Assembly: GCA_947561395.2 (NCBI GenBank)
Contig: OX387184.1
Location: 14,178,205 to 14,242,204, forward strand
From: Buxus sempervirens
Lineage: Eukaryota; Streptophyta; Magnoliopsida; Buxales; Buxaceae
Direction: 5' to 3'
Length of the DNA stretch: 64,000 nucleotides
Below the pieces are notes generated by a model. It ran no database searches. It had not been told where the DNA came from and saw nothing but the letters and a program-made list of their open reading frames with translations. Below, piece by piece: positions 38,303 through 54,885 of the stretch. How positions within the stretch are numbered: position 1 is the stretch's first letter; each line of letters starts with the position of its first letter. The position numbers were made by a program, and so were the translations under genes.

Positions 38303-41300
38303 ATGCCAATTGCTGATAATGTCCAACAACGTTTACGTAAACTCAGTTTCCAACTTAAAACTTGGAATCGTGAGGAAGTGGGCAACATACATCAAAAGAA
38401 ATTGGAATTAAGGGCCAAACTGCAGAAAATTCAAGAAACCATTGATACTAACTCCTCTCCTCTTCTTTTCAGGGATGAACAGCTCCTTCAACACCAATAT
38501 GCAAAGATCTTAAGACAACAGGAGACTTTTTGGGCGCAGAAATCAAGAGTTAACTGGCTTCGAGAAGGAGATCAAAATACTGCTTTTTTCCACAGAACCA
38601 CCATGATTCGCAGACAACGGAATACCATTTTATCTCTGAAGGATGGAGCTGGTATAGAAGTATCCTCATCTTCGAGCATTGAGAAAATGTTTTTGAAGCA
38701 TTTTCACCTCCTGTATGCGGAAAAGCAAAACTGGAGTAATTTTGAATTACCAGGCCTAATTCCCAGGAAAATCTCTGTGGATCAGTGTACGCTCATTGAA
38801 GAGGTGCCAACTCCCCTTGAGATTTGGAATGTTGTGAAGTCACTCGGCTCTTCTAAAGCACCAGGCCCTGACAGATATCAAGGTATATTCTATACCACTT
38901 ATTGGAACATTGTGGGAGCCCAAGTTGTAGCCACAGTCCAGGACTTTTTCAGGTTTAGACTCTTACCTAAAGGGATTAACCATACTTATATTATTCTTAT
39001 TCCCAAATCCCTTCATCCTCGAACTGTTCATGACTTTCGGCCTATTAGTCTATGTAACTTTTTGTATAAAATTATCTCTCGTATCATTGTTAATAGAATC
39101 AGGCCTTTTCTTCAGGATCTTATCTCTCCTTATCAAACTGCTTTTGTCCCCAATAGATCGATCAGAGATAATATTCTTGTCAATCATGAAATTGCTCACT
39201 GTTTTAGGAAAAAAACAAAAAAAATCAAGAACAACTTGCAAAAATCACATACTCATAATCATTCAAAAAAACAAAAAACAAAAAAAAATTCTGGTTGTCA
39301 TGGCCTTTTCACTTTAAAACTTGATTTCTCTAAGGCTTACGACAATTTAAGCTGGTCTTTTTTGGAAGAGGTTCTTAAATGTCATGGTTTTATGCCAAAT
39401 TCTGTTGCATTGATTATGGCCTGTGTCCGAACAGTTACTTACAGCATATTAGTCAATGGCAAACCTGTAGGCAATTTTGCTCCTCAATGTGGTCTGCGTC
39501 AGGGAGACCCTCTCTCCCCTTACTTGTTTATATTGTGCCAATAGGTTTTATCTTTAGCTATTTCTTGTGCGGAACTGGACAACAGATTTAGAGGTGTGAG
39601 CATAAGAAAGGGCAGTTTAGCGGTTTCCCATTTAATGTATGTGGATGACGTGTACATTTATGGTCATGTGTCGGAGACGGAGGTCCATGCTATTACTCGT
39701 ATCCTTCATCAGTACTGTGTGGAAGCAGGCCAAGCCATAAATTATGATAAATCTTCATTGCACTTCAGTCACAGTACCCCGCATATGGATAAGGTTAAGA
39801 CCATTCAGACCATGAAAATTACAGGTAAGTACAGTCATGGTAAATATTTGGGTTTACCAGTGTGGAACAGGAAACCAAAGTCTTCTGATTGCAAGGATCT
39901 ACTGGATAAGATTGAATCAAGGCTTGATGGGTGGAAAGCTTCTTTGCTTTCACAAATGGGGCGTTTGATTCTTATTCAATCGGTTTTGTGTGCACTGCCT
40001 ACTCACTACATGAATTGTTTCTTATTGCCACAGGAGATCCTGTATAAAATTGATAAGATGGCTAGGCAATTCTTCTGGGCTAAGAGGGATGACAAGCAAG
40101 CAATCCACTCAGTTTGTTGGGAGAGAATTACAACCCCATGGAGAAATGGTGGGCTCAACATTAAGAGAACACCCCTCATGAACGTGGCCCTCATTCTTAA
40201 GGCTGCTTGGCAGTTGACGACTCATCACCAAGGTATTTGGGCTCGTCTTATGAAAAGTGCTTATTTTCCTGATACCACCTTTTTTAATGCAGGATTTCGT
40301 AGATAGCATTCGTACGGCTGGAGGCAGATGCAAAGTATGGCCAAATGGATTACTAAAGGAAGCAGTTGGACAATTGCTAATGGAAAAGACATTGATATAC
40401 TCAAAGATTCGTGGATTCATGGTGAAACTGATGTTATGAAGCTTGATCAGAATGAGTCTCAATTTACTTTGGAATCGGTCAACCAGCTCCTCACACCGAT
40501 GTCCAACTCATGGAACACAGCATTACTCCACAGGTTTTGGAATAACTCGAATGTTAATAATATCACTAATACGCCCCTGTTCCCTCTTCTTTAGCACGAT
40601 GAAAGACACTGGACAGCTACTTCACATGGTAGGTTTACTGTGGCATCAGCTTACAGTTTACTTTTGGGCAACCAACTTCAGGAGAACAACCCCATCTGGC
40701 GAAAAATCTGGCATTTACATTGTCCTGGAGTCATCAAGATCTTCTTGTGGAAGTGTCTCCACAATGCTCTTCCCACTGCTGTCTTTTTAAGGAATCGGAA
40801 TATCAATGTGGACACTGCATGCTGTTTCTGTACAGATGATCAAGAGACGACTGAACACTTATGGCTAGGATGTCCCTTCTCCCGAGCCATCTGGTTTAAA
40901 ATCTTGGGTGGAACTGCCCAAGAAAAAGGACCTCAAACGAACTTCTTCCAATGGTTTGCACATTTAATAACTATGCAAAATCTCCCCCCCCCCCCCCCCC
41001 AATTTTGATTCACATGCTTTTTTTTGCAGGAATTGCTAACTTTGGTTGGACGATCTGGAAACAAAGACTAGGAATCAAGATGGAGGCTAAGCATCCATCT
41101 CTTGGTGCGGCTTGCTCCCAATTGAATCGATTGCAGGAAGATTCTAAGCTTTTAATAAAGTGGTCTGCAGCTCAACAACTTCCTGGTGTATACATTGATA
41201 TTGCATGGAAAAAGCCTGCTCATCCACTCATAAAGCTGAATGTTGATGGGGCATGGCGAACCTCTATAAATTGTGCTTCTGTGGGCGGTCTACTCAGGGA

Positions 41301-41668
41301 CTCAACCGGAAAATTCCTAGCTGGATTTGCATCGGTGGTTACTGCTTCATCGGCAATGGAAGCTGAAGCTTTGGCGGTCTATGAAGGTCTTAATTTGGCA
41401 ATTGCACGAGGTTACGACCACTTACTACTGGAAGGTGACTCCCTCATCATCATTGGTTTGTTACAATCGGATAATCCTTCCTTCCCGTGGCGCATAAGAG
41501 GAATCATGTCGGATGTGAAGCACAAGTGTAGTTCTTTCTCCTCCATTTCTTTCATCCATAGTTATCGGGAGGCCAACGCAGCGGCTGATGCGTTGGCCAA
41601 CTTTGCTTTAGATTCATTTTCATGCACTTGGTTATCTTTCCCCCCCTCCTGTAGACACCCCAAATTGC
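38303..41668 (+). pseudogene. LINE ORF2: reverse transcriptase, zf-RVT, RNase H, broken
   Basis: The frame opens in the region between endonuclease and reverse transcriptase (SRVNWLREGDQNTAFFH). RT blocks follow: SSKAPGPD, DFRPISLCNFLYKIISR, TLKLDFSKAYD, GLRQGDPLSPYLFIL, and the active-site block HLMYVDDVYIYG. Then comes zf-RVT (CCFCTDDQETTEHLWLGCPF) and RNase H (KLNVDGAWRTS, LEGDSLIIIGLL, REANAAADALANFALD). The N-terminal endonuclease is missing. Breaks: a TAG at 39542-39544, a frame change near 40300, a TAG near 40592, and a 17-base C run (40984-41000). A stretch rich in Lys/Asn codons at 39210-39290 looks like an expanded A-rich insertion. The last residues before 41649 are LINE; those after belong to the inserted LTR. 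Confidence 0.9.
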
Positions 41669-43468
41669 ACTAAAAATGAGAAAATAATTGAAAATATTAA
41701 TTGGGATTTGAAACAGGTCAAAAAAGTGTAAAATCTGGCCAAATTGGTCATGACCGTATTTTGTTTACGGACTGGTCATACCTGCAGTTGATATACGGTC
41801 ACGGCGTGCCCGTATTAATAATACGGGCAGGGCGCGACCGTAATATATATACGGGCACGGGGGTCTTTGTGCGAATTTTACCTTTTGATTTTTGAGCCTT
41901 ATCTGCACCCAAATATCTCTCTTGGATAAGCGAATTCTCTTATTTATCTGTTCGAATTATCTCATTTATCCTTGATTGGCTATGGATGGGCATTATCTCC
42001 AATTTTCACTCTATCCTGAGGATCAGGATATATCCTTCTGGACCAACCATGCCCCTGGGTGTGTCTATAAATAGAGGCTCATTCCTCTAGCTAAGGGCCA
42101 CGAAATTTTGAAGAATCAAAAGCTCCAAGAGAAGGAAAGGAATCCCTGCTGCTCTGCATGCTCAATCCAGGTAAGTCCCCTATCCCTTTTTATTTTTCTG
42201 TCTTCAATTCTAGAAGTAATAGGATCATCTCTATTGCTGTAGAATAAGGCCATATCTGTTTTTGTATTCCTAAACTTGTCTCTAAGTACCTCAAGGGTCT
42301 CTCTAGCCGTAAAACGTGAAGAGAGAACTAGGGGAAAGGGGAACAGGTGGATCCCTAGAATAGAACCCCATATATGTTTTTTTGTTTTTTTCATAGAATA
42401 AGGCCTGTGATTGTGTTTGTATACCCCAAACCTATCTCCAAGTACCTCAAGAGTCTCTCTAGCCGTAAAACGTGAAGAGAGAACTAGGGGAAAGGGGAAC
42501 AGGTGGATCCGTAGGGTAGACCCCAATGTGCTCAAATTTGTGAGATGTGGCCGTTTTAAATATCCTGATCATGTTTTAATGCTTTTATGATATATCTGAA
42601 TGAATCACATGAATCTATGATGTTTATAGCATGAGATCCTCACTTTTTGACAAAATTTGGATTTTCCACATATTTGCACCTACAGCACTATTTTTGTGAT
42701 TTTTGCGATTTTAGGCTAGGATTTTGGATTTATCATGATCAATATGGTAGATCTAAATCTAGAAGCCTGAAAGTAAATTCTAGGGTTTCATGATGTGGTT
42801 TTTAAGTTGTTTTTCATTATTGAGAGAAGACCCTACGGTCTAAATTCTCCCCTTTTGGTGTTTTTCATTAATGTGGATATTTTTGGTTTTGATTTTCAGA
42901 TTTAATGTGAAATTTGGGCTTTATCTATGTCCTGGACTATTCAGGTTAAATTTTGAAATATTTTATAAAAATCATATTTTTCTAGATTTCTAGAATTTAG
43001 CTTGAAGCCAGATTTTTGGATTTTTCACTTTAAATTGATTTTATTTTATTTTATCTCAAATTTGTTTTGATCACGAAACCCTAGGAATGGTATGATCATG
43101 TTTAATAGTTCTGGATCAATCAGACTATTCATATGAAAAAACCATATATTTTTGCCTTTTTTGTGATTTTGTGTGATTTTTATAGCAAGCTTTTTCCTTT
43201 ATTTTAACATGAACAAATACCTGGTAACCACCTTGTGTGGATGAATAGGGGTGCCTAACACCTTCCCCTGTTCCTAACTTAATCCCCTTACCCATCTCTG
43301 GTTGTTTTTTTTAGGAGGGTTATTTTTACCCTAAAATTGCCTTTTGTGCTTATTTGATATTTTGGTGTCCATTCACACCTAAATTTAATGGTGGCGACTC
43401 TTTATTTTATATAATCCCGTGTGATGATTGAGGAAATCATTAAGATTGATTTTTTCCCATGTCTCACA
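41650..43468 (+). repeat. 5' LTR
   Basis: 1819 bp. TATAAATA at 42066-42073 is a likely promoter. A consensus splice donor CAG/GTAAGT follows at 42171. An internal near-perfect duplication of about 131 bp occupies 42240-42370 and 42394-42524. The zone 41747-41862 contains ACGG...CCGT dyad motifs. Reading the two LTRs side by side I count five substitutions and one single-base indel. Confidence 0.93.
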
Positions 43469-43488
43469 ACTGGCGACTCTGCTGGGGA

Positions 43489-44979
43489 CTTGTGGATTTG
43501 AGCCTTTTGGTGTTTTAGTTCATGTTTTTGATATTTTTGGATTTGCTTGCTATTTTGTGTTCTTAAGCATGTTGAATATGTTTTAAATCTGAATTATTGC
43601 TTAAGAATTCATGGGGGTAGAAACATGCTTAATTTTGATTTATAGGATTGTTTCTACAAACATGCGTAGGGGAGGTCCGTTTTGATGAACTATGCTTATT
43701 TTTTGCTATATGTTTATGATAGCATGTTTTAATTTTTAGCATGATCTCCATGATGATTTCGGGTGTATAACATGATCATATGTTTGCATGATAGATGATT
43801 TTTTTTTATGAGCATGTTTTGGGTGCTATAGGATCGCTTTATTTACTTGTTTATTTTAAATATGCTTTCCTATTATGCCTTGGTTTGTTTATGCATGGCT
43901 GCGAAAAGAGTGGCAAGGGTTTGGGACGTTGTGAATGCACCCTATTTTTACAATGCACTGTGCACCTTTTATTTTTTACACGGCCTACCCTTAACCTATA
44001 GGAAGTTGAACCCGAATGTGTGTAGCTTGGCGCAACGAGGTCGATACTTCGGAAAGCGAAAGTGAAAACATTCACCTTAGAACTTTGAGCTAATGATGTG
44101 ATGATAATGTGGATCTGGGATTCTGGTCATCACTAGGCTTGAGTGCTAAGTTGCCATTAAGCCAAAACCCAAAACCCCTACGCTTGAAGGTGGAGTTACA
44201 CGTTTTTGGCTAAAGTACACAATTACGTGGGAATACGGGTTTGTATGATTGTGGGAAGGCCGTGTGCATGGCTTACAAACCAGGGCATAATGCGGATGCT
44301 ATATTCAAGGTAAACAAGGTAACAAGGTAATCCTATTGTTTTGCATTATTTTCATGTCATAGGGGTGTCATGGTACCCATGGGTTTGGGATAAAATTGGT
44401 CCCAAAATATGCATATTTTCTAAAAGTTGGTGCAGCCCATAGGAAGAGTTTCTAACTCTGTTTAGAATCAATCCTACCCTATGTACACACAAGAGGCAAC
44501 AAAAGGGTATCAAATTCTTGAGTATGATGTCAATTTGGAGGGTACGTGTGCCCTCCTAAGCATGTGTTTTAACAAAAAGGCCAAAGTCCACTTTGGGATA
44601 GTTTAGAAGCTCTGCAATGGGTGAACCGTACGTTTGGATGAACAATGAAAGTGATCAAACCATGTAAAAACTGGAAAAACATAACAGGGTTCCGTAAAAC
44701 CGCATTTAGTACACGGGCTGGGCTTGCCCGTATTGGTTATACGGGCTAGGCTCGCCCGTGAATTGCATACGGTCACGGCTTGCTCGTAATTTGAATACGG
44801 GCAGGGCTGGACCGTACTATGTATACGGTTTTCTCGGAATATTCAACCTTAATCAGTTTTTCTCACTAAAATCTTCCTTTAACCCTTCAATAATAATAAA
44901 GGGAAACAAGTTTGAATAAAATGCTTCAAAAAAAAAAAAACAAAATAATTGAATAAAAAATGTGAGAGAAAGGTTCCTT
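43489..44979 (+). other. Retrotransposon leader, first part
   Basis: No coding frame is recognisable. At 44710-44833 there is a cluster of dyad-symmetric ACGGGC...GCCCGT-type motifs matching those in the LTR. Confidence 0.6.
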
Positions 44980-47324
44980 GGGCTTCTGAAAGCTTTTGAA
45001 TTTCAGACTTTTTCAAAATTCTTGGGCTTCTGAAAGCCTTTGAATTTCAGACTTTTTCAAAACTCCTGGGCCTCTGAAAGCCTTTGAATTTCAGACTTTT
45101 TCAAAACTCCTGGGGCTTCTGAAAGCCTTTGAATTTCAGACTTTTTCAAAACTCTAGGGCCTCTGAAAGCCTTTGAATTTCAGACTTTTCCAAAACTCCT
45201 GGGCTTCTGAAAGCATTTGAATTTCAGACTTTTCCAAAACTCCTGGGCCTCTGAAAGCCTTTGAATTTCAGACTTTTTCAAAACTCCCGGGCCTCTGAAA
45301 GCCTTTGAATTTCAGACTTTTTCTCAATAACTCCTCGGGCCTCTGAAAGCCTTTGAATTTCAGACTTTTATCAAAAATCCTTGGGCCTCTGAAAGCCCTT
45401 GAATTTCAGACCTTTTCCAAAAATATCTTTGGGCTTCTGAAAGCCTTTGAATTTCAGACTTTTTCTCAAAAATCCCTGGGCCTCTGAAAGCCTTTGAATT
45501 TCAGACTTTTTTCAAAAATATCCCTGGGCCTCTGAAAGCCTTTGAATTTCAGATTTTTCAAAAAACCCTCAGGCCTCTGAAAGCCTTTGAATTTCAGATC
45601 TTTTGGGCCTCTGAAAGCCTTTGAATTTCAGACTTTTTCTCAAAAACTCTTTGGGCCTCTGAAAGCCTTTGAATTTCAGATTTTTTCTCAAAAACTCCTT
45701 GGGGCCTTTGAATTTCAGATCCTTTTTCCTTTTCGGGACCTGTTGGAAGCCCTAGAATATTCCAACAAACCTTTTTTGGGCCGTCTATAAGCCTCTGAAT
45801 TATAGACACATATCCTTTGGGGCCGTCTAAAAGCCTCTGAATTTTAGACAAATCATTTCTTTGGGCCATCTAAAAGCCTCTGAATTTTAGACAAATCATT
45901 TTTTGGGCCGTCTATAAGCCTCTGAATTATAGACACATAACCTTTTTGGGCCGTCTAAAAGCCTCTGAATTTTAGACAAATCATTTCCTTGGGCCGTCTA
46001 AAAGCCTCTGAATTTTAGACAAATCATTTCTTTGGGCCATCTAAAAGCCTCTGAATTTTAGACAAATCATTTTTTTGGGCCGTCTATAAGCCTCTGAATT
46101 ATAGACACGTAACCTTTTTGGGCCGTCTAAAAGCCTCTGAATTTTAGACAATCATTTTTTTGGGCCGTCTATAAGCCTCTGAATTATAGACACATATCCT
46201 TTGGGCCGTCTAAAAGCCTCTGAATTTTAGACAAATCATTTCTTTGGGCCGTCTATAAGCCTCTGAATTATAGACACATATCTTTTTCCTTTGGGCCGTC
46301 TAAAAGCCTCTGAATTTTAGACAAATCATTTCTTTGGGCCGTCTATAAGCCTCTGAATTATAGACACATATCCTTTGGGCCGTCTAAAAGCCTCTGAATT
46401 TTAGACAAATCATTTCTTTGGGCCGTCTAAAAGCCTCTGAATTTTAGACACAACTCCTTTGGGCCGTCTAAAAGCCTCTGAATTTTAGACAAATCATTTT
46501 TGGGCCGTCTAAAAGCCTCTGAATTTTAGACAATCATTTCTTTGGGCCGTCTAAAAGCCTCTGAATTTTAGACAAAACATTTCTTTGGGCCGTCTAAAAG
46601 CCTCTGAATTTTAGACAAACCTTTTCTTTGGGCCGTCTATAAGCCTCTGAATTATAGACACATATATCATTTGGGCCGTCTAAAAGCCTCTGAATTTTAG
46701 ACAATCATTTTTTTTGGGCCGTCTAAAAGCCTCTGAATTTTAGACAAATCATTTCTTTGGGCCGTCTAAAAGCCTCTGAATTTTAGACAAATCATCCTTT
46801 GGGCCGTCTATAAGCCTCTGAATTATAGACACATATCTTTTTCCTTTGGGCCGTCTAAAAGCCTCTGAATTTTAGACAAATCATTTCTTTGGGCCGTCTA
46901 AAAGCCTCTGAATTTTAGACAAATCATTTCTTTGGGCCGTCTATAAGCCTCTGAATTATAGACACATATCTTTTTCCTTTGGGCCGTCTAAAAGCCTCTG
47001 AATTTTAGACAAATCATTTCTTTGGGCCGTCTAAAAGCCTCTGAATTTTAGACAATCATTTCATTGGGCCGTCTAAAAGCCTCTGAATTTTAGACAAATC
47101 ATTTCTTTGGGCCATCTATAAGCCTCTGAATTATAGACACATATCCTTTGGGCCTCTGAAAGCCTTTGAATTTCAGACTTTTTTCAAAAATATCCCTAGG
47201 CCTCTGAAAGCCTCTGAATTTCAGACTTTTTCCAAACCTTTTCTTTGGGCCTCTGAAAGCCTTTGAATTTCAGATCTTTTTCTCTTTTTGTGGGACCTGT
47301 TGGAAGCCCTAGAATATTCCAACA
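44980..47324 (+). repeat. Tandem array of hairpin-forming units in the retrotransposon leader
   Basis: About 53 units of roughly 40-50 bp. Each contains an inverted repeat around a nearly fixed 9-base loop GCCTYTGAA. Four stem classes occur. Class A: TCTGAAA/TTTCAGA, 16 units plus one truncated (44980-45718) and 3 units (47150-47275). Class B1: GTCTAAAA/TTTTAGAC, about 22. Class B2: GTCTATAA/TTATAGAC, about 10, interspersed with B1 (45776-47149). Class G: TGTTGGAA/TTCCAACA, two units (45741-45767, 47298-47324) with an 11-base loop. Units begin GGGCC and are separated by T-rich spacers. In every B unit I read, both arms belong to the same class. Confidence 0.95.
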
Positions 47325-47518
47325 ATTCAATTCAAAAAAAAAAAAGAAGCAAATAAAGAAAAAAAAATCCAAACTCGTGTTCACCCAGCTTGCACATAGG
47401 CATTCATAGGCATGTGAATGAGTTTAAATGGGCACTGATATTTTTTCCTTTATTGTTTTGCCAGGTACCAAGTACAATTGCAACCATAGCTCCTGTAACC
47501 AGATCAAGAGCTCACACC

Positions 47519-49198
47519 ATGAATCCTATTGAAACTGAAGCTGATACTCCTCATCCAGATGTTGTCCTACTCCAAGAACAAGTGGCAGGACTAGCCCGAA
47601 TGTTAGAGAACATACTATCGGTGCAGGCCCAACAAGTTCAAGCCCAGAACCAAGCACCTCCACCTCCAATCAATATCCCACCTCCGGTTCAACCTATTCC
47701 TGAACCCATTTCTGAACCTACCCCTGAACCTATACTGATCAGGGAGGAGATGGTTGAGTCTGAGAAAGAGAAGGAAAAAGAGAGAATGAGGGATGAAATA
47801 GAAAGAAAATTCATGCACAGGCTGGAGATGATCCAAGAGGAAATGAGGGAGGTGAAAGGTATACGTAACTTTGGGGGCACCAATTTTGAAGATCTGTGCC
47901 TATACCCCGATGTATGTCTACCGGCCAAGTTTAAATGCCCAGATTTTGATAAATATGATGGCACTGGCTGCCCAATGAGCCATTTGAAGTTATACTGCGG
48001 GGCTTTATGCCAGTTTGGCCGGGATGACGGCATACTAATTCAACTCTTCCAGAGGAGTTTAACTGGAGCTGCTTTGAAGTGGTTTACCACTTTGGATCAT
48101 GGGAAAATAAGAAGGTGGAAGGATTTAGCAGATTCCTTTTTGGCACAATACAGGTTCAACTCTGAGATTATACCAGATAGGTATGACATGATGAGGATGA
48201 CAAAGAGAAATGATGAGACCATAAGGCAATATACTAAAAGGTGGAGGGAGTTGGCTGCACAAGTCAAGCCACCCATGGGAGAACCAGAAATGATTTCAAC
48301 TTTCATCATGACATTGGGGCAACCATTTTACAGTCACTTGGTGGGTCAAACTACCACCAACTTTGTTGCCCTAGTGCAAGTGGCAGACAGAATTGAAGAT
48401 GGGATCAAGTCTGGGAAAATAGTTGATTACTCTGCAGTGTTGAACCAGGAAGCTTCCACCACTTTCTCTACACAGAAAAAGGAGAATGGTAATGGAAGAA
48501 GAAAGAATGAAGAAAGGATAGAAGCAGAAGTGAATATGGTACAACTTCCCAGGGAACCCTTTCAAATCAATACCTATCCACCTCCTATCAAGCCAACCCA
48601 TCAAGTTCCTTTGCTGCCTATCCAAATTAATGTCCCTTTTGCACAGCCTGTGAAGGAGGAAACAGAAGTAAGGAAGAGAAGAGAATTTTCTAAACTGCCT
48701 ATGAGACCATCTGAACTTTTGCCTACTTTACTTCAAAAGGGTTATGTGACTTTGAAGTTGCCAAATCCTCATGCAAGTAAGGGGAAGGGTTATGATTCAT
48801 CTGCAATCTGTAATTATCATATGAGCACTCCAGGGCATACCACAGATCGCTGCTTGGCCCTAAAGCATGCAATTCAGGATTTACTGGATAATAACTCTTT
48901 ATCATTCAATTCAGTCACCCCCATCCCATCTACCGATAACAATGGGGCAGGCAGCTCAAATGCAATAGGGGCAATTTTCTCTAGAGAAAGAAGATTTGAC
49001 CCTTCTCAGCTTATCGCTCCTATTGATCCAACAGTCATGGTTTATCTTGAAAGAAATGCTCCTGGTTATGAGCAGGAAGGCTTGCCTTACTCAGCAGGAG
49101 AAAGAAATTATCTGAAAAAGGGAGAAAATTCAACTTTTGCCTTTGAGAACAGGGGCAGTTTTCGAACTCCCACGTTCTCTGAAAAGAAACCTGCATAA
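47519..49198 (+). CDS. gag: Retrotransposon Gag polyprotein
   Basis: 559 residues from ATG 47519; the frame is open upstream to 47390, but the acceptor at 47464 suggests the later start. In order: an N-terminal segment, a Pro/Glu-rich linker at about residues 45-85 (PEPISEPTPEPI), a charged coiled-coil-like stretch (EKEKEKERMRDEIERKF), then the retrotransposon gag capsid domain at about 125-290 (CPDFDKYDGTGCP, LKWFTTLDHGKIRRWKDL, FLAQYRFNSEIIPDRYDM, RQYTKRWRELAAQVKPP, STFIMTLGQPFYSHLVG). Near residue 435 is CNYHMSTPGHTTDRC, a zinc knuckle with a C-x2-H-x5-H-x4-C pattern, as in Tat/Ogre-type Gags. The frame is intact. It would package RNA in virus-like particles, using enzymes supplied by other elements. 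Confidence 0.9.
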   Translation: MNPIETEADTPHPDVVLLQEQVAGLARMLENILSVQAQQVQAQNQAPPPPINIPPPVQPIPEPISEPTPEPILIREEMVESEKEKEKERMRDEIERKFMHRLEMIQEEMREVKGIRNFGGTNFEDLCLYPDVCLPAKFKCPDFDKYDGTGCPMSHLKLYCGALCQFGRDDGILIQLFQRSLTGAALKWFTTLDHGKIRRWKDLADSFLAQYRFNSEIIPDRYDMMRMTKRNDETIRQYTKRWRELAAQVKPPMGEPEMISTFIMTLGQPFYSHLVGQTTTNFVALVQVADRIEDGIKSGKIVDYSAVLNQEASTTFSTQKKENGNGRRKNEERIEAEVNMVQLPREPFQINTYPPPIKPTHQVPLLPIQINVPFAQPVKEETEVRKRREFSKLPMRPSELLPTLLQKGYVTLKLPNPHASKGKGYDSSAICNYHMSTPGHTTDRCLALKHAIQDLLDNNSLSFNSVTPIPSTDNNGAGSSNAIGAIFSRERRFDPSQLIAPIDPTVMVYLERNAPGYEQEGLPYSAGERNYLKKGENSTFAFENRGSFRTPTFSEKKPA

Positions 49199-52100
49199 GA
49201 AGAATGCACATTTCCTGAGGATCCTAAGGAGCCTTGTTCTCAGGAAGTGATTTTAATAAAGGCTCTTCAAAAAAAAAAGATTTTTCCCTTTAACATTTTT
49301 CTAGAAAAAAGAAAAAAAAAGTTTTCAGCAAGGCCCTTTTACTTATGAATCATATCTCTTATTGAATTTCATTGAGTTGAATATGACTTCGACATTGGGC
49401 TCAATTTTGAGACCAAAATCGAAGAAAAAGACATTTTATGTGAAAATTCAAATCTTTTTAAGTGTCATGAGAAGAATATTCTGCAAAATTATGAAGTGAC
49501 CAGTTTTATGGCCTTTGGAACCAAAGATGACCCACAGTCTTCAACAGAAAAGATAGAAGAAGATTTGGAGTTTCTTCATTAGAATACAGAAAGGATCGCA
49601 TCACTTGCTGATTCGTTCAAAGGGAAGTTGATAATATTGTTTGAAGAAATTTTGAGGCTTTGCACTTGAAAATATGGGAGAAGATTTGACATTTTCGTTG
49701 GAAATATAATTGGGCATCATTTGATTGAAAGAATCCAAATTCATAAGATTGATCAAAAGGTGAAGAACTTGTTCATAACAGAAGTTCTATTTAAAGAGGC
49801 TTTCACGTTGACAGAAGGTGATTAAGAAGAAAAAAAAGAAGAAAAATTTCCTGAACTAGTCATGTAGTACAACTTTACCAAGTCTGATAATTCAATTTTT
49901 TCTTAAAATGATAAGAGGCCTTTCTTTCTTATATCCCCAAAAATTTTGAAATCCCTAGTTAGACCCTTTGAGCTTGATACATTTTTCCAAGTAACCTAAA
50001 CTGAGAATTGTAACCCCACACTGGGGCAAATTTATTAAGGCATAAAAAAAAAAGGGGAATGAAGGGACAGTTATTGAAGTTAAAAGGGATTTTGAATATG
50101 TTTTCAGAAAATGGGGCAAAGAAATGAGAAAAAAAAAAGAGAAGAAAAAGAAAGAAAAAAAAGGGAAGAAAAAAAAAGATAATCAAATGTTATTTGGAGA
50201 ATGTCTTCAAAATTGTGAAGAAAAGAATGAAAAAAAAGAAGTTCAATACTGGAGAATAAGTTTCAAATGAAGAAATCAAATTGAGGAAAGAACTTCATTA
50301 TTGGGAGCAATTTTGTATTCATTCCAAGGGAAGAAATGCCTTAAAAATTACAATTTCAGTTAACCCATTTGATCATATGATATTTGAGCCTTTTATTCCT
50401 TTTCTTTCTAAACTAACACCAAGCCTTCGTTTCGTCCCATTCATAAGTCCTCTTTGATTAAGAAATTTTGAATTAAGACAGCTTTGACTACATAGTTGCT
50501 GGTGATGAAGGATTAAAAAAAAAAAAAAAGGAAAAATGAAGGAAATGTAGTGAAAACCCGGGAGGGCGCTACATGGCAAATAATCAGCTATCTACAAGAA
50601 GGAAATCGTCAGAGAGGAAAGTCCAAAATTGGCATAGATCCAGATGAAGTCCTCATGTTGGTGGTTATTTTGAGATACAGCCACTCTTCAAGTGATTGAG
50701 GAAAATTCTCTTTTCAAGACTGAAGCAACATAATCAGAACTATGATATGAATCATCTATGAACAAGTTGATGGCCATCAAAATTGCCATTAGGAAATTAT
50801 TGCTGAAGTTGAAGTCATAAATTCACATATCATGGATACAATGGAGAAACAATTGCTCTTCAATTGGATGAAGGAAAATGTCTTTCTAAACTGGGGCAAA
50901 ATAGTCAGATTGAAAGAGTCGTCATATCTGGAGCATCAATTGATAGGCCGATGGTCATGGGAATGATTCTAAAGGTTCCGAAGGCTTATTTTGGTCTTTC
51001 TTCATTTTCTGAAATAATCTTCTCATTATTCAACTTGATTTTAATTCTTTTGGACTATATGCTAATAAGTGATTGGATCAATTTTCAAAAAAAAATCAAA
51101 ACACAAAAAAAAAGGCAAAAAAATATATTTTTGGCCTATGATGAGAATCTATATCTTTTCATAAAACATTTGTTTTGCAAGCATTAGAGAATTCTGAGGC
51201 CACTAGTATAAAACATATTTTCTTATGTTTGCATTTGCATTCTTCTATTAGGGTTTCTTTTTGGCAAAGGCTAAAAAAAAAAAAAAAAAAAGAAAAGAGA
51301 AAAAGAAAAAAGAAAAAAAAAAGAAAAAGGAAAAAAGAGGATCATCTCCACTGAGGGGCAAATACTTCTTCAAACAATCAAAACCGGGGCATGCTCAGTG
51401 TCTTCTGGGTTTTCATTGGAATGAATTCCAACATCTAGAAGAAGCAATCAAGCTTTAGTCTTCGAATTTGAAAGAAAAAGAAAAGGCTTCGAAGCAATGG
51501 CATGTTTTCTTCATTAAACAAGGGTTCCCAATTCTTCAATCATGAAGAAGGATTTTACTGGGGCAGCAAAAAGGCATGAAAGACAGATCATGGGTTGTAA
51601 AGGCATGAGGTTAGATCAACAGATCATGATCCATCAATCAAGATGAGGGCATTCACTTGGGCAATTAAAAAGCATGAAGACGGGTTATGGGCAGCAAGGG
51701 CACATACATCGTTATTGAGAGAGCAAGAAAATAAATAAGCAAAAGCAAGTTGCAGAATATTCAAGCACAGGTTTGGGCATCAAATGGCACCCAGGTATAT
51801 CAAATAAGAAAATCAATCAGGAAAATTCAAAAAGTGAAAAACATCAAAATCAATTGAGTTTGCAGTGGTCAATTTTAAATCCACACTCTTTTCAAAAATT
51901 GCTTGTCTCATATTTCTTTTCATAGCCACGAGAGCTCCAAGAAATCTGAGATAAGGAAGAGACGCCATCTCATCAAACTTCAAGCAGGGGTTTCATTGGC
52001 TATCTTCGAATCCATGTTTTTATCATTGTTTGACCAAAGCAAGTTCAATTAATGAGATGTTTTTCAAATGTGTAATTTTGAGTTGTGTCTGTTATTTGCT

Positions 52101-52460
52101 GTTCATTGTGCTACAACTGCAGGCCACCCAGAAAAATTGTCTTTTTCATCATTTTCTCCGCACTTTTCAGGAGATCAATGTTTATATTAGTTGTAAGTTG
52201 CAAGGATTGCCACCTTACCCACTTTTGTTTAAAAATTTTGTCTCAAATCTCACTTCATAGCCACGAGAGCTCAGTGAGAAGAGAGAGGAGGATTTGGCCC
52301 TTAAGCTGAGGGACTTCTTAGCAAATCTTCCACAATCAATTCTTTTTTCAAAAATCATCCATTTAATCCTTGCAAAGTGCAATTGATTAGACAAAAATCT
52401 TAGAAAGTGCAATTGGTGGGTCTTTTTGCTCTCTGCTCGTAATTGGTTCCAATCACCAGC
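49199..52460 (+). other. Non-coding 3' part of the LTR element
   Basis: No pol domain in any frame. A-rich with several GAAAAA-type purine runs (49300-49320, 50120-50180, 51270-51340). Around 51906-51942 and 52240-52276 a direct repeat TTCATAGCCACGAGAGCTC occurs twice. Short patches reading as Gag-Pol-like sentences were not found. Confidence 0.65.
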
Positions 52461-52474
52461 AAAGAGGGGGCAGC

Positions 52475-54292
52475 TGTAGACACCCCAAATTGCACTAAAA
52501 ATGAGAAAATAATTGAAAATATTAATTGGGATTTGAAACAGGTCAAAAAAGTGTAAAATCTGGCCAAATTGGTCATGACCGTATTTTGTTTACGGACTGG
52601 TCATACCTGCAGTTGATATACGGTCACGGCGTGCCCGTATTAATAATACGGGCAGGGCGCGACCGTAATATATATACGGGCACGGGGGTCTTTGTGCGAA
52701 TTTTACCTTTTGATTTTTGAGCCTTATCTGCACCCAAATATCTCTCTTGGATAAGCGAATTCTCTTATTTATCTGTTCGAATTATCTCATTTATCCTTGA
52801 TTGGCTATGGATGGGCATTATCTCCAATTTTCACTCTATCCTGAGGATCAGGATATATCCTTCTGGACCAACCATGCCCCTGGGTGTGTCTATAAATAGA
52901 GGCTCATTCCTCTAGCTAAGGGCCACGAAATTTTGAAGAATCAAAAGCTCCAAGAGAAGGAAAGGAATCCCTGCTGCTCTGCCTGCTCAATCCAGGTAAG
53001 TCCCCTATCCCTTTTTATTTTTCTGTCTTCAATTCTAGAAGTAATAGGATCATCTCTATTGCTGTAGAATAAGGCCATATCTGTTTTTGTATTCCTAAAC
53101 TTGTCTCTAAGTACCTCAAGGGTCTCTCTAGCCGTAAAACGTGAAGAGAGAACTAGGGGAAAGGGGAACAGGTGGATCCCTAGAATAGAACCCCATATAT
53201 GTTTTTTTGTTTTTTTCATAGAATAAGGCCTGTGATTGTGTTTGTATACCCCAAACCTATCTCCAAGTACCTCAAGAGTCTCTCTAGCCGTAAAACGTGA
53301 AGAGAGAACTAGGGGAAAGGGGAACAGGTGGATCCGTAGGGTAGACCCCAATGTGCTCAAATTTGTGAGATGTGGCCGTTTTAAATATCCTGATCATGTT
53401 TTAATGCTTTTATGATATATCTGAATGAATCACATGAATCTATGATGTTTATAGCATGAGATCCTCACTTTTTGACAAAATTTGGATTTTCCACATATTT
53501 GCACCTACAGCACTATTTTTGTGATTTTTGCGATTTTAGGCTAGGATTTTGGATTTATCATGATCAATATGGTAGATCTAAATCTAGAAGCCTGAAAGTA
53601 AATTCTAGGGTTTCATGATGTGGTTTTTAAGTTGTTTTTCATTATTGAGAGAAGACCCTACGGTCTAAATTCTCCCCTTTTGGTGTTTTTCATTAATGTG
53701 GATATTTTTGGTTTTGATTTTCAGATTTAATGTGAAATTTGGGCTTTATCTATGTCCTGGACTATTCAGGTTAAATTTTGAAATATTTTATAAAAATCAT
53801 ATTTTTCTAGATTTCTAGAATTTAGCTTGAAGCCAGATTTTTGGATTTTTCACTTTAAATTGATTTTATTTTATTTTATCTCAAATTTGTTTTGATCACG
53901 AAACCCTAGGAATGGTATGATCATGTTTAATAGTTTTGGATCAATCAGACTATTCATATGAAAAAACCATATATTTTTGCCTTTTTTGTGATTTTGTGTG
54001 ATTTTTATAGCAAGCTTTTTCCTTTATTTTAACATGAACAAATACCTGGTAACCACCTTGTGTGGATGAATAGGGGTGCCTAACACCTTCCCCTGTTCAT
54101 AACTTAATCCCCTTACCCATCTCTGGTTGTTTTTTTTAGGAGGGTTATTTTTACCCTAAAATTGCCTTTTGTGCTTATTTGATATTTTGGTGTCCATTCA
54201 CACCTAAATTGAATGGTGGCGACTCTTTGTTTTATATAATCCCGTGTGATGATTGAGGAAATCATTAGATTGATTTTTTCCCATGTCTCACA
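52475..54292 (+). repeat. 3' LTR
   Basis: 1818 bp, about 99.7% identical to the 5' LTR by eye. The TATA box is at 52891-52898, with the same internal 131-bp duplication (53065-53195 and 53219-53349). Confidence 0.93.
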
Positions 54293-54410
54293 CCTCCCCA
54301 AATATCTGCTGTACTTCTTGCGGATACTGCGGGCGTTTCGACTCCCAGATGTGTCCGGCAGTAATGTATGTCTCACTTGCCACCAAAAAAAAAAAAGTAT
54401 CTCTAGAAAC

Positions 54411-54711: not shown

Positions 54712-54885
54712 AAGAGGTTTTAGAAGAGAATGCCCCTTTGCCCTTCTACTAGTGTTCCATTTGCTGGTCCAATGGCAATGCATGTGTCCACATAGGTGTG
54801 TGAAGCTGACGTGTACACATGCATTGCCATTAGACCAGCAAATTTTCCAGCAAGAGGGTCTAGGTGATATGCTCTCCCTTCCAAG
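54712..54885. mobile_element. Probable MITE with a long near-perfect hairpin core
   Basis: Arms 54760-54786 and 54816-54842 are 27 bp inverted repeats with one mismatch (TTTGCTGGTC...GCATGTG). Weaker inverted similarity continues outward (CCCTTCTACTAGTG vs CCCTCTTGCTGG, AGAGAATGCCC vs GGGAGAGCATA). No clear TSD. Confidence 0.5.

What the first reader, a model, noticed from the sequence alone, without database searches (positions are those of the whole stretch)
44980..47324. About 53 tandem hairpins with compensatory stem changes in a retrotransposon leader
Units share a constant 9-base loop GCCTYTGAA but have four different stems: TCTGAAA/TTTCAGA, GTCTAAAA/TTTTAGAC, GTCTATAA/TTATAGAC and TGTTGGAA/TTCCAACA. 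The differences between B1 and B2 (A-T vs T-A at an inner pair), and between A and B1 (G-C vs A-T), are compensatory. In about 32 B units I saw no mixed arms. This is the pattern expected if the RNA or cruciform fold, not the sequence, matters: for example genome packaging or dimerisation, a bound protein array, splicing bridging across a long leader, or a source of small RNAs. Homogenisation by unequal exchange can spread whole units, but it does not by itself explain new complementary stem classes around a fixed loop. I know of no described element with this architecture.
Basis: partly seen in the sequence, partly recalled or inferred. Interest (0 to 1): 0.9.

Follow-up and report, generated by a model that had tools for sequence, protein, structure and literature searches.

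The report
Hairpin array in retrotransposon leader intron
A family of plant jumping genes carries dozens of repeated small RNA-hairpin sequences just before its gag gene, inside a stretch that is apparently cut out of the gag message but kept in the full-length RNA, so the hairpins may mark the copy that gets packaged.

Summary
The array is real. Window 44984-47324 holds 54 units: 20 A (one truncated), 22 B1, 10 B2, 2 C. It lies in a young, gag-only plant LTR retrotransposon (LTRs 99.67% identical). All 21 leaders read (one a near-duplicate) carry it just upstream of gag, with 11-54 units. A sister family with reverse transcriptase has an array with another stem and a 76-bp period at the homologous spot. 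Across classes, 5 of 8 stem pairs show Watson-Crick double changes.

New here: array and primer-binding site lie inside a predicted leader intron, with its donor in the LTR and its acceptor about 54 nt before gag. Exact joined junctions occur at 5 genomic loci; two are copies lacking LTR remainder, PBS and array.

That the fold rather than the sequence matters is only partly supported. Loops are about as conserved as stems. Genome-wide single mutants do not prefer G.U (761) over A.C (879). Two classes with one mismatch are amplified. Template-switch mutation could make compensated stems without selection.

Best guess: a multivalent signal found only on unspliced genomic RNA (packaging or dimerisation). 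The anatomy is shown; the function is inferred.

The parts
41645..41649 (.). target-site duplication CCTCC (left; right copy 54293-54297)
   Evidence: sequence
41650..43468 (+). 5' LTR, TG...CA
   Evidence: self-BLAST 99.67% over 1820 columns to 3' LTR; ends read
42066..42073 (+). TATA box TATAAATA; a transcription start about 30 nt downstream is assumed, not measured
   Evidence: 102-128 nt before the donor in 20 of 21 rows
42168..42173 (+). 5' splice site CAG|GTAAGT inside the LTR (intron starts 42171)
   Evidence: CAGGTAAG in 20 of 21 rows (L032 has lost the LTR); joined junctions
43471..43489 (+). primer-binding site TGGCGACTCTGCTGGGGAC
   Evidence: next to LTR end; found in 19 of 21 rows with small variation at its end (not in L032, L044) and in the sister family; match to tRNA-Arg is recalled
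44713..44828 (+). short palindromes ACGGGC..GCCCGT upstream of the array
   Evidence: (TRF)
44984..45720 (+). A block: 16 units plus one truncated
45741..45767 (+). C unit TGTTGGAA-GCCCTAGAATA-TTCCAACA
45783..47138 (+). B block: 22 B1 and 10 B2 units
47150..47280 (+). second A block, 3 units (ends approximate)
47298..47324 (+). terminal C unit, last unit in all 21 rows
42171..47464 (+). predicted leader intron (5.3 kb) holding the rest of the LTR, PBS and array
   Evidence: joined junctions at 5 loci
47462..47464 (+). 3' splice site, pyrimidine tract + CAG|GTAC
   Evidence: CAG|GTAC in 20 of 20 aligned rows
47519..49198 (+). gag (Retrotrans_gag)
   Evidence: PF03732 E 7.7e-13
52475..54292 (+). 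3' LTR, preceded by a G-rich tract GAGGGGGCAGC

Best explanation
A non-autonomous, gag-only LTR retrotransposon makes two RNAs. Splicing from a donor in the LTR to an acceptor about 54 nt before gag removes the rest of the LTR, the primer-binding site and the hairpin array, leaving a short leader that can translate gag. RNA that escapes splicing keeps the PBS and array and is the genome that is reverse-transcribed. The array is then a cis signal found only on unspliced RNA, made of dozens of small hairpins with a fixed core (GGGC flank, 7-8 bp stem, GCC...GAA loop). It most likely works as a multivalent binding or pairing platform for Gag and genome dimerisation, much as retroviral packaging signals lie downstream of the splice donor. 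Shown: position, conservation, covariation between classes. Strongly indicated by joined junctions in the genome: splicing. Inferred: use in packaging. Unit number and class order turn over quickly, by strand transfer or unequal exchange (inferred).
For: Array just upstream of gag in 21 of 21 rows and at the homologous place in a sister family with RT and RNase H. Donor in 20 of 21 rows, acceptor in 20 of 20. Exact joined junctions at 3 loci of this family and 2 of the sister family; the two sister loci are U3-TATA-exon1|gag copies without PBS and array. With an assumed start site, splicing lowers upstream ATGs from 67-105 to 0-1 (20 rows). Core diversity is .000-.020 against .049-.250 in same-length spacers (9 groups) and .071/.086 in single-copy leader flanks. 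Watson-Crick double changes in 5 of 8 pairs.
Against: No RNA, Gag-binding or packaging data. Standing mutations do not favour G.U over A.C. Mismatched classes and a loop-replaced class are amplified. The number of units varies five-fold, so no exact number is needed. The A block does not fold better than shuffles. The joined junctions could in principle be deletions between two CAGGTA microhomologies, and the three loci of this family look like one event.
Confidence: 0.4

Rival explanations
1. By-product of replication: the hairpins themselves make reverse transcriptase or DNA polymerase switch templates, which both creates compensated stems in one step and expands and homogenises the array. 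The array has no function, like the hypervariable minisatellites of Tat/Ogre elements.
For: Template switching can make and repair stems (PMC8794818: abstract and one results section read). Tandem arrays in Tat 3' regions are hypothesised to arise by strand transfer (PMC7004042 passages). No sign of pairing selection in standing variation. Array size varies 11-54 units.
Against: Fixed position in 21 rows and in a sister family about 75% identical in parts of the leader. Core far less variable than adjacent spacer and single-copy flanks. C units look stepwise: the sister terminal unit CTTGGAA/TTCCAAC (L071, L072, L074) has a C.C mismatch, while the window has G-C and the sister inner units C-G. 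No inverted loops found.
Confidence: 0.3
2. Splicing control: the hairpins shorten or structure the long intron, or slow splicing so that enough full-length RNA survives.
For: The array fills 14-44% of the 3.4-5.3 kb intron (the .52 printed for L043 is inflated by a stray hit and left out). A, B1 and B2 3' arms contain CAG or TAG that a stem would hide (sequence).
Against: C, C' and B3 3' arms contain no CAG or TAG. Unit number varies five-fold. A copy with 11 units (L038) keeps the same splice sites.
Confidence: 0.15
3. Sequence-specific protein-binding array in DNA or RNA (host or element factor) in which the palindrome is part of the binding site.
For: Stem and loop sequence are both conserved within classes. 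A second palindrome set occurs in U3 and leader, and it differs between families.
Against: Stem sequence changes between classes while pairing persists, unlike a fixed DNA site.
Confidence: 0.12

Closest known systems
Hypervariable tandem-repeat regions of Tat-lineage elements (Ogre, Retand, GmOgre minisatellites)
   Same: tandem, family-specific, length-variable arrays inside plant Ty3/gypsy elements (PMC7004042, PMC3305785, PMC11963269: passages seen)
   Different: described arrays lie between pol and the 3' LTR; this one lies just upstream of gag, inside an apparent leader intron, with a conserved hairpin core. The words hairpin and secondary structure do not occur in the main text of PMC3305785 or PMC11963269
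Retroviral packaging signals lying downstream of the major splice donor
   Same: present only in unspliced RNA, between PBS and gag (general principle recalled)
   Different: dozens of near-identical 9-11-nt-loop hairpins rather than a few distinct stem-loops; no binding evidence
BARE retrotransposon RNA pools
   Same: a spliced RNA dedicated to Gag, separate from the packaged RNA; parasitic gag-less partner with conserved packaging signals (PMC3735527 passages)
   Different: BARE removes a 104-nt intron at the end of gag; here a 3.4-5.3 kb leader intron before gag
TR-GAG non-autonomous elements
   Same: LTRs plus a gag ORF and no pol (name known from the listing and recall)
   Different: about 12.6 kb with a long leader and array

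Membership tests
Tat/Ogre clade Ty3/gypsy element | additional RNase H between RH and integrase in autonomous members | not tested
   only a 3-kb piece with RT and RNase H of the sister family was scanned; feature from PMC6317226 passages
Tat/Ogre clade Ty3/gypsy element | PBS of the clade (tRNA-Arg type) | tested here: inconclusive
   TGGCGACTCTGCTGGGG conserved in 19 of 21 rows and in the sister family; tRNA identity recalled, not searched
Tat 3' hypervariable tandem repeats | array lies between coding region and 3' LTR | tested here: not met
   array is 5' of gag; TRF finds only A-rich low-complexity repeats at 49.2-52.4 kb
TR-GAG non-autonomous LTR element | LTRs, TSD, PBS, gag ORF and no pol ORF | tested here: met
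   no other ORF of 150 aa or more in the element
Retroviral-type packaging signal | located in RNA removed by splicing, kept in genomic RNA | tested here: met
   joined junctions at 5 loci, subject to the microhomology caveat; no RNA seen
Retroviral-type packaging signal | binds Gag and is needed for packaging | not testable with these tools
   needs RNA and protein experiments
Template-switch-made hairpins | double compensating changes in one step, occasional inverted loops | tested here: inconclusive
   double changes between classes; 0 inverted loops in the window plus 19 copies

The most novel reading that the evidence does not exclude
A plant retrotransposon clade uses a variable-number array of dozens of hairpins, confined to an intron and therefore to genomic RNA, as a multivalent packaging/dimerisation signal. 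Its stem 'code' is swapped between families and classes while the loop and GGG flank (possibly forming a small pseudoknot, GGG(C) with loop GCC(Y)) stay nearly fixed, letting gag-only elements compete for or borrow the machinery of autonomous relatives.
Probability: 0.25. Interest if true: 0.85.

Novelty: new variant of a known kind. Interest (0 to 1): 0.62.

Why it matters
How plant LTR retrotransposons separate translated from packaged RNA, and what their packaging signals look like, is little known. This family offers thousands of natural units, a reverse-transcriptase-bearing sister with another stem, and fossil junctions that indicate a leader intron, so selection and function can be tested directly. 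It is also a good natural test of whether hairpin covariation comes from selection or from template-switch mutation.

Tried and rejected
Rejected: a first guess that exon 1 is ATGGCTTACAAACC..AAG|GTAAAC (44267-44308), joined in frame to GTACCAAG. 6 of the 20 rows printed have a 1-nt gap just after the acceptor that breaks that frame, so the LTR donor is preferred. Rejected: known RNA family (best Rfam hit in the array SCARNA6, 17.1 bits against a cut-off of 68, minus strand). Rejected: small-RNA hairpin precursor (7-8 bp stems are too short; argument from recall). The shuffle comparison (757 of 826 perfect, shuffled mean 293) is not used as proof because units are clonal. One search's fuzzy scan missed many units and was replaced. 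MAFFT placed the C gap in a stem, so the pair counts use a split at the loop. In one search my A and B1 stretches were badly cut and did not fold as the hairpin; one search repeats this with whole units. Paper searches bearing on tandem repeats or hairpins near gag gave nothing matching: 10 papers; 64 papers, 20 listed; 34, 20 listed; 0; 0; 1, on palindromes as insertion targets, listing only. Most subscription papers are not in the library. Not obtained: the second mixed B1/B2 orientation, the total of A units, the B3 count, and the search GGGCNVNNNNNNGCCTYTGAA (service busy).

Full report
What is there. The window is plant DNA: it holds a chlorophyll-binding-protein ORF, and the genome held is 676 Mb in 247 contigs. 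The array sits in an LTR retrotransposon at 41650-54292. The two LTRs are 99.67% identical over 1820 columns, begin TG, end CA and are flanked by CCTCC. The only long ORF is gag (PF03732); no other ORF of 150 aa or more lies inside. The gag query gave 78 scored hits of 11871 candidates, those 78 being 91-100% identical. The top protein-database match is a 41% identical Tetracentron sinense protein.

The array. 54 units at 44984-47324 follow the order A16, truncated A, C, B32, A3, C. I fetched 20 further leaders (L031-L050). All 21 rows including the window carry an array of 11-54 units just upstream of gag, ending in a C unit; 5 of 21 have a C unit directly before the first B block. L032 has lost its upstream leader, and L036 is a near-duplicate of L035 and was dropped before counting. 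All 30 gag loci, each with about 1.5 kb upstream, contain A-type units.

Conservation. One search found 622 units in 20 copies; 6 with more than 6 mismatches (three of them far stray hits) were dropped, leaving 616 (291 A, 208 B1, 89 B2, 28 C). Stem and loop differ from the class sequence about equally often.0096 and .0080 for A.0135 and .0112 for B1.0035 and .0037 for B2.0089 and .0065 for C. Using only units whose following spacers have equal length, so that no alignment gaps enter, the inner core has diversity .000-.020, the spacer .049-.250, and the GGGC(C) flank .013-.100 (9 groups). Single-copy leader before and after the array has .071 and .086, the first 310 or so nt of gag .045 (L032 and L037 left out of the first). 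So the core, stem and loop alike, is constrained or specially homogenised.

Covariation. The pattern GGGC-N2-V-N6-GCCTYTGAA, which excludes the known B stems, hit 79 places against 1 control. Reading 20 regions around some of these places showed many uncompensated single changes (a biased sample, since I searched for changes). It also showed a divergent subfamily (L067, L068) with a fully paired class GTTTGAAA/TTTCAAAC, beside variants of it with a mismatch. The pattern for CTTGGAA/GTTGGAA/ATTGGAA with the 11-nt loop hit 6546 places, control 0. Reading four of these arrays showed a sister family with a 76-bp period and a CTTGGAA/TTCCAAG stem at the same place. In 33 distinct units from window, L068, L071, L073 and L074 (the truncated window unit left out), 83.7% of cells are standard pairs (shuffles 74.1%, maximum 78.0%; slid 37-62%). 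5 of 8 pairs have Watson-Crick double changes, one with three pair types; one of the five is the outermost pair, which is mostly unpaired. The number of independent events is small and unknown.

Results against a pure structure reading. Single mutants of the 7-bp stem in 29 copies: 22 G.U, 24 A.C, 31 other mismatches, no Watson-Crick double. In hairpin A the change giving G.U and the change giving A.C at the fourth pair are the same mutation on opposite DNA strands. Genome-wide they number 761 and 879; 99 and 98 of the first 100 listed have the A loop. So no RNA-pair selection is visible in standing variation, most of which may date from after insertion; units are not independent. The outermost B1 pair is A.C in 30 of 208 units. 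The sister family has an amplified T.T class and, in L073, five units with the loop replaced. Mixed B1/B2 arms are rare: 2 of 297; 30 of 7116 for one orientation. Tight linkage of whole units also explains that. Whole A, B1, B2, B3, C and C' units fold as drawn, the T.T class does not. The A block as a whole does not beat shuffles.

Leader intron. The LTR has TATAAATA and, 102-128 nt later, CAG|GTAAG: the donor is present in 20 of 21 rows, L032 having lost the LTR. A pyrimidine-rich tract with CAG|GTAC lies shortly before gag in 20 of 20 aligned rows. With the start assumed 32 nt after TATA, the unspliced leader holds 67-105 ATGs and the spliced one 0-1 (20 rows). The joined sequence CTGCTCAATCCAG|GTACYAA occurs at 3 places, control 0. 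All three have the last 15 or so nt of exon 1 placed before the gag exon with the intron end and array still upstream, so they look like one template switch between spliced and unspliced RNA, later copied. Both are U3-TATA-exon 1 joined to gag, with PBS, LTR remainder and array absent, and they differ from each other. Deletion between CAGGTA repeats is possible but less likely for repeated exact junctions.

Sister family. A 3-kb piece has G-patch, reverse transcriptase and RNase H domains (integrase not examined). Its leader is 66-77% identical in pieces to the window element, with the same PBS; a CAG|GTAAG donor after TATA is seen in L077, the one sister piece that reaches it. Its gag-side pieces are 67-70% identical in DNA (L071, L074); those of the hybrid L075 are 76-81%.

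Mechanism. I think the array marks unspliced RNA. It is absent from the inferred gag message and lies downstream of the PBS in the RNA that must be copied. It is kept at this place in both an RT-bearing and a gag-only family, and it is multivalent. BARE, where spliced gag RNA is not the packaged RNA (PMC3735527 passages), shows that such separation exists in plants. The conserved GGG flank and loop GCC could pair as a small pseudoknot: 742 of 826 units have GGGC with GCCT. The loop-replaced class lacks this and the idea is untested.

Known kinds. Tandem arrays in Tat elements are known, but 3' of pol (PMC7004042, PMC3305785, PMC11963269; passages). PMC6317226 (passages) gives the clade features. 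I found no paper on hairpin arrays upstream of gag, of which 57 and 64 list only 20 papers each.

Noticed in passing
41741-41865 (U3) and 44713-44828; sister L083 2-115 and L071 about 181: A second palindrome set: ACGGGC..GCCCGT / ..GACCGT in U3 and again just before the array; in the sister family L083 has TATCCGG..CCGGATA in U3 and L071 one TATCCG..CGGATA before its array, so both places seem to change together. L082 and L077 gave none with that filter (7 of 21 rows and 4 sister pieces looked at).
   Followed up: partly
genome C6:53750156/53759450, C1:68477165/68486912, C4:40618008/40627591: Pairs of gag hits 9.3-9.7 kb apart on one strand, with the same unit order in the one pair read (L035/L036): tandem element units, perhaps sharing LTRs.
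   Followed up: no
L068/L075 (C11:10533000-10537500): A hybrid leader: sister-type C' units followed by B units including B3, suggesting recombination between families.
   Followed up: partly
38303-39544 and 40951-41673: A reverse-transcriptase ORF (RVT_1) and a second ORF that looks RNase H-like (unscanned), LINE-like, directly upstream of the insertion.
   Followed up: no
about 42157, 5' LTR: The window's 5' LTR has an ATG in exon 1 (CTGCATGCTC) where its 3' LTR reads CTGCCTGCTC: an upstream ATG that probably arose after insertion.
   Followed up: no
54759-54843: Sub-threshold microRNA-like matches on both strands, probably a palindromic small transposon.
   Followed up: no
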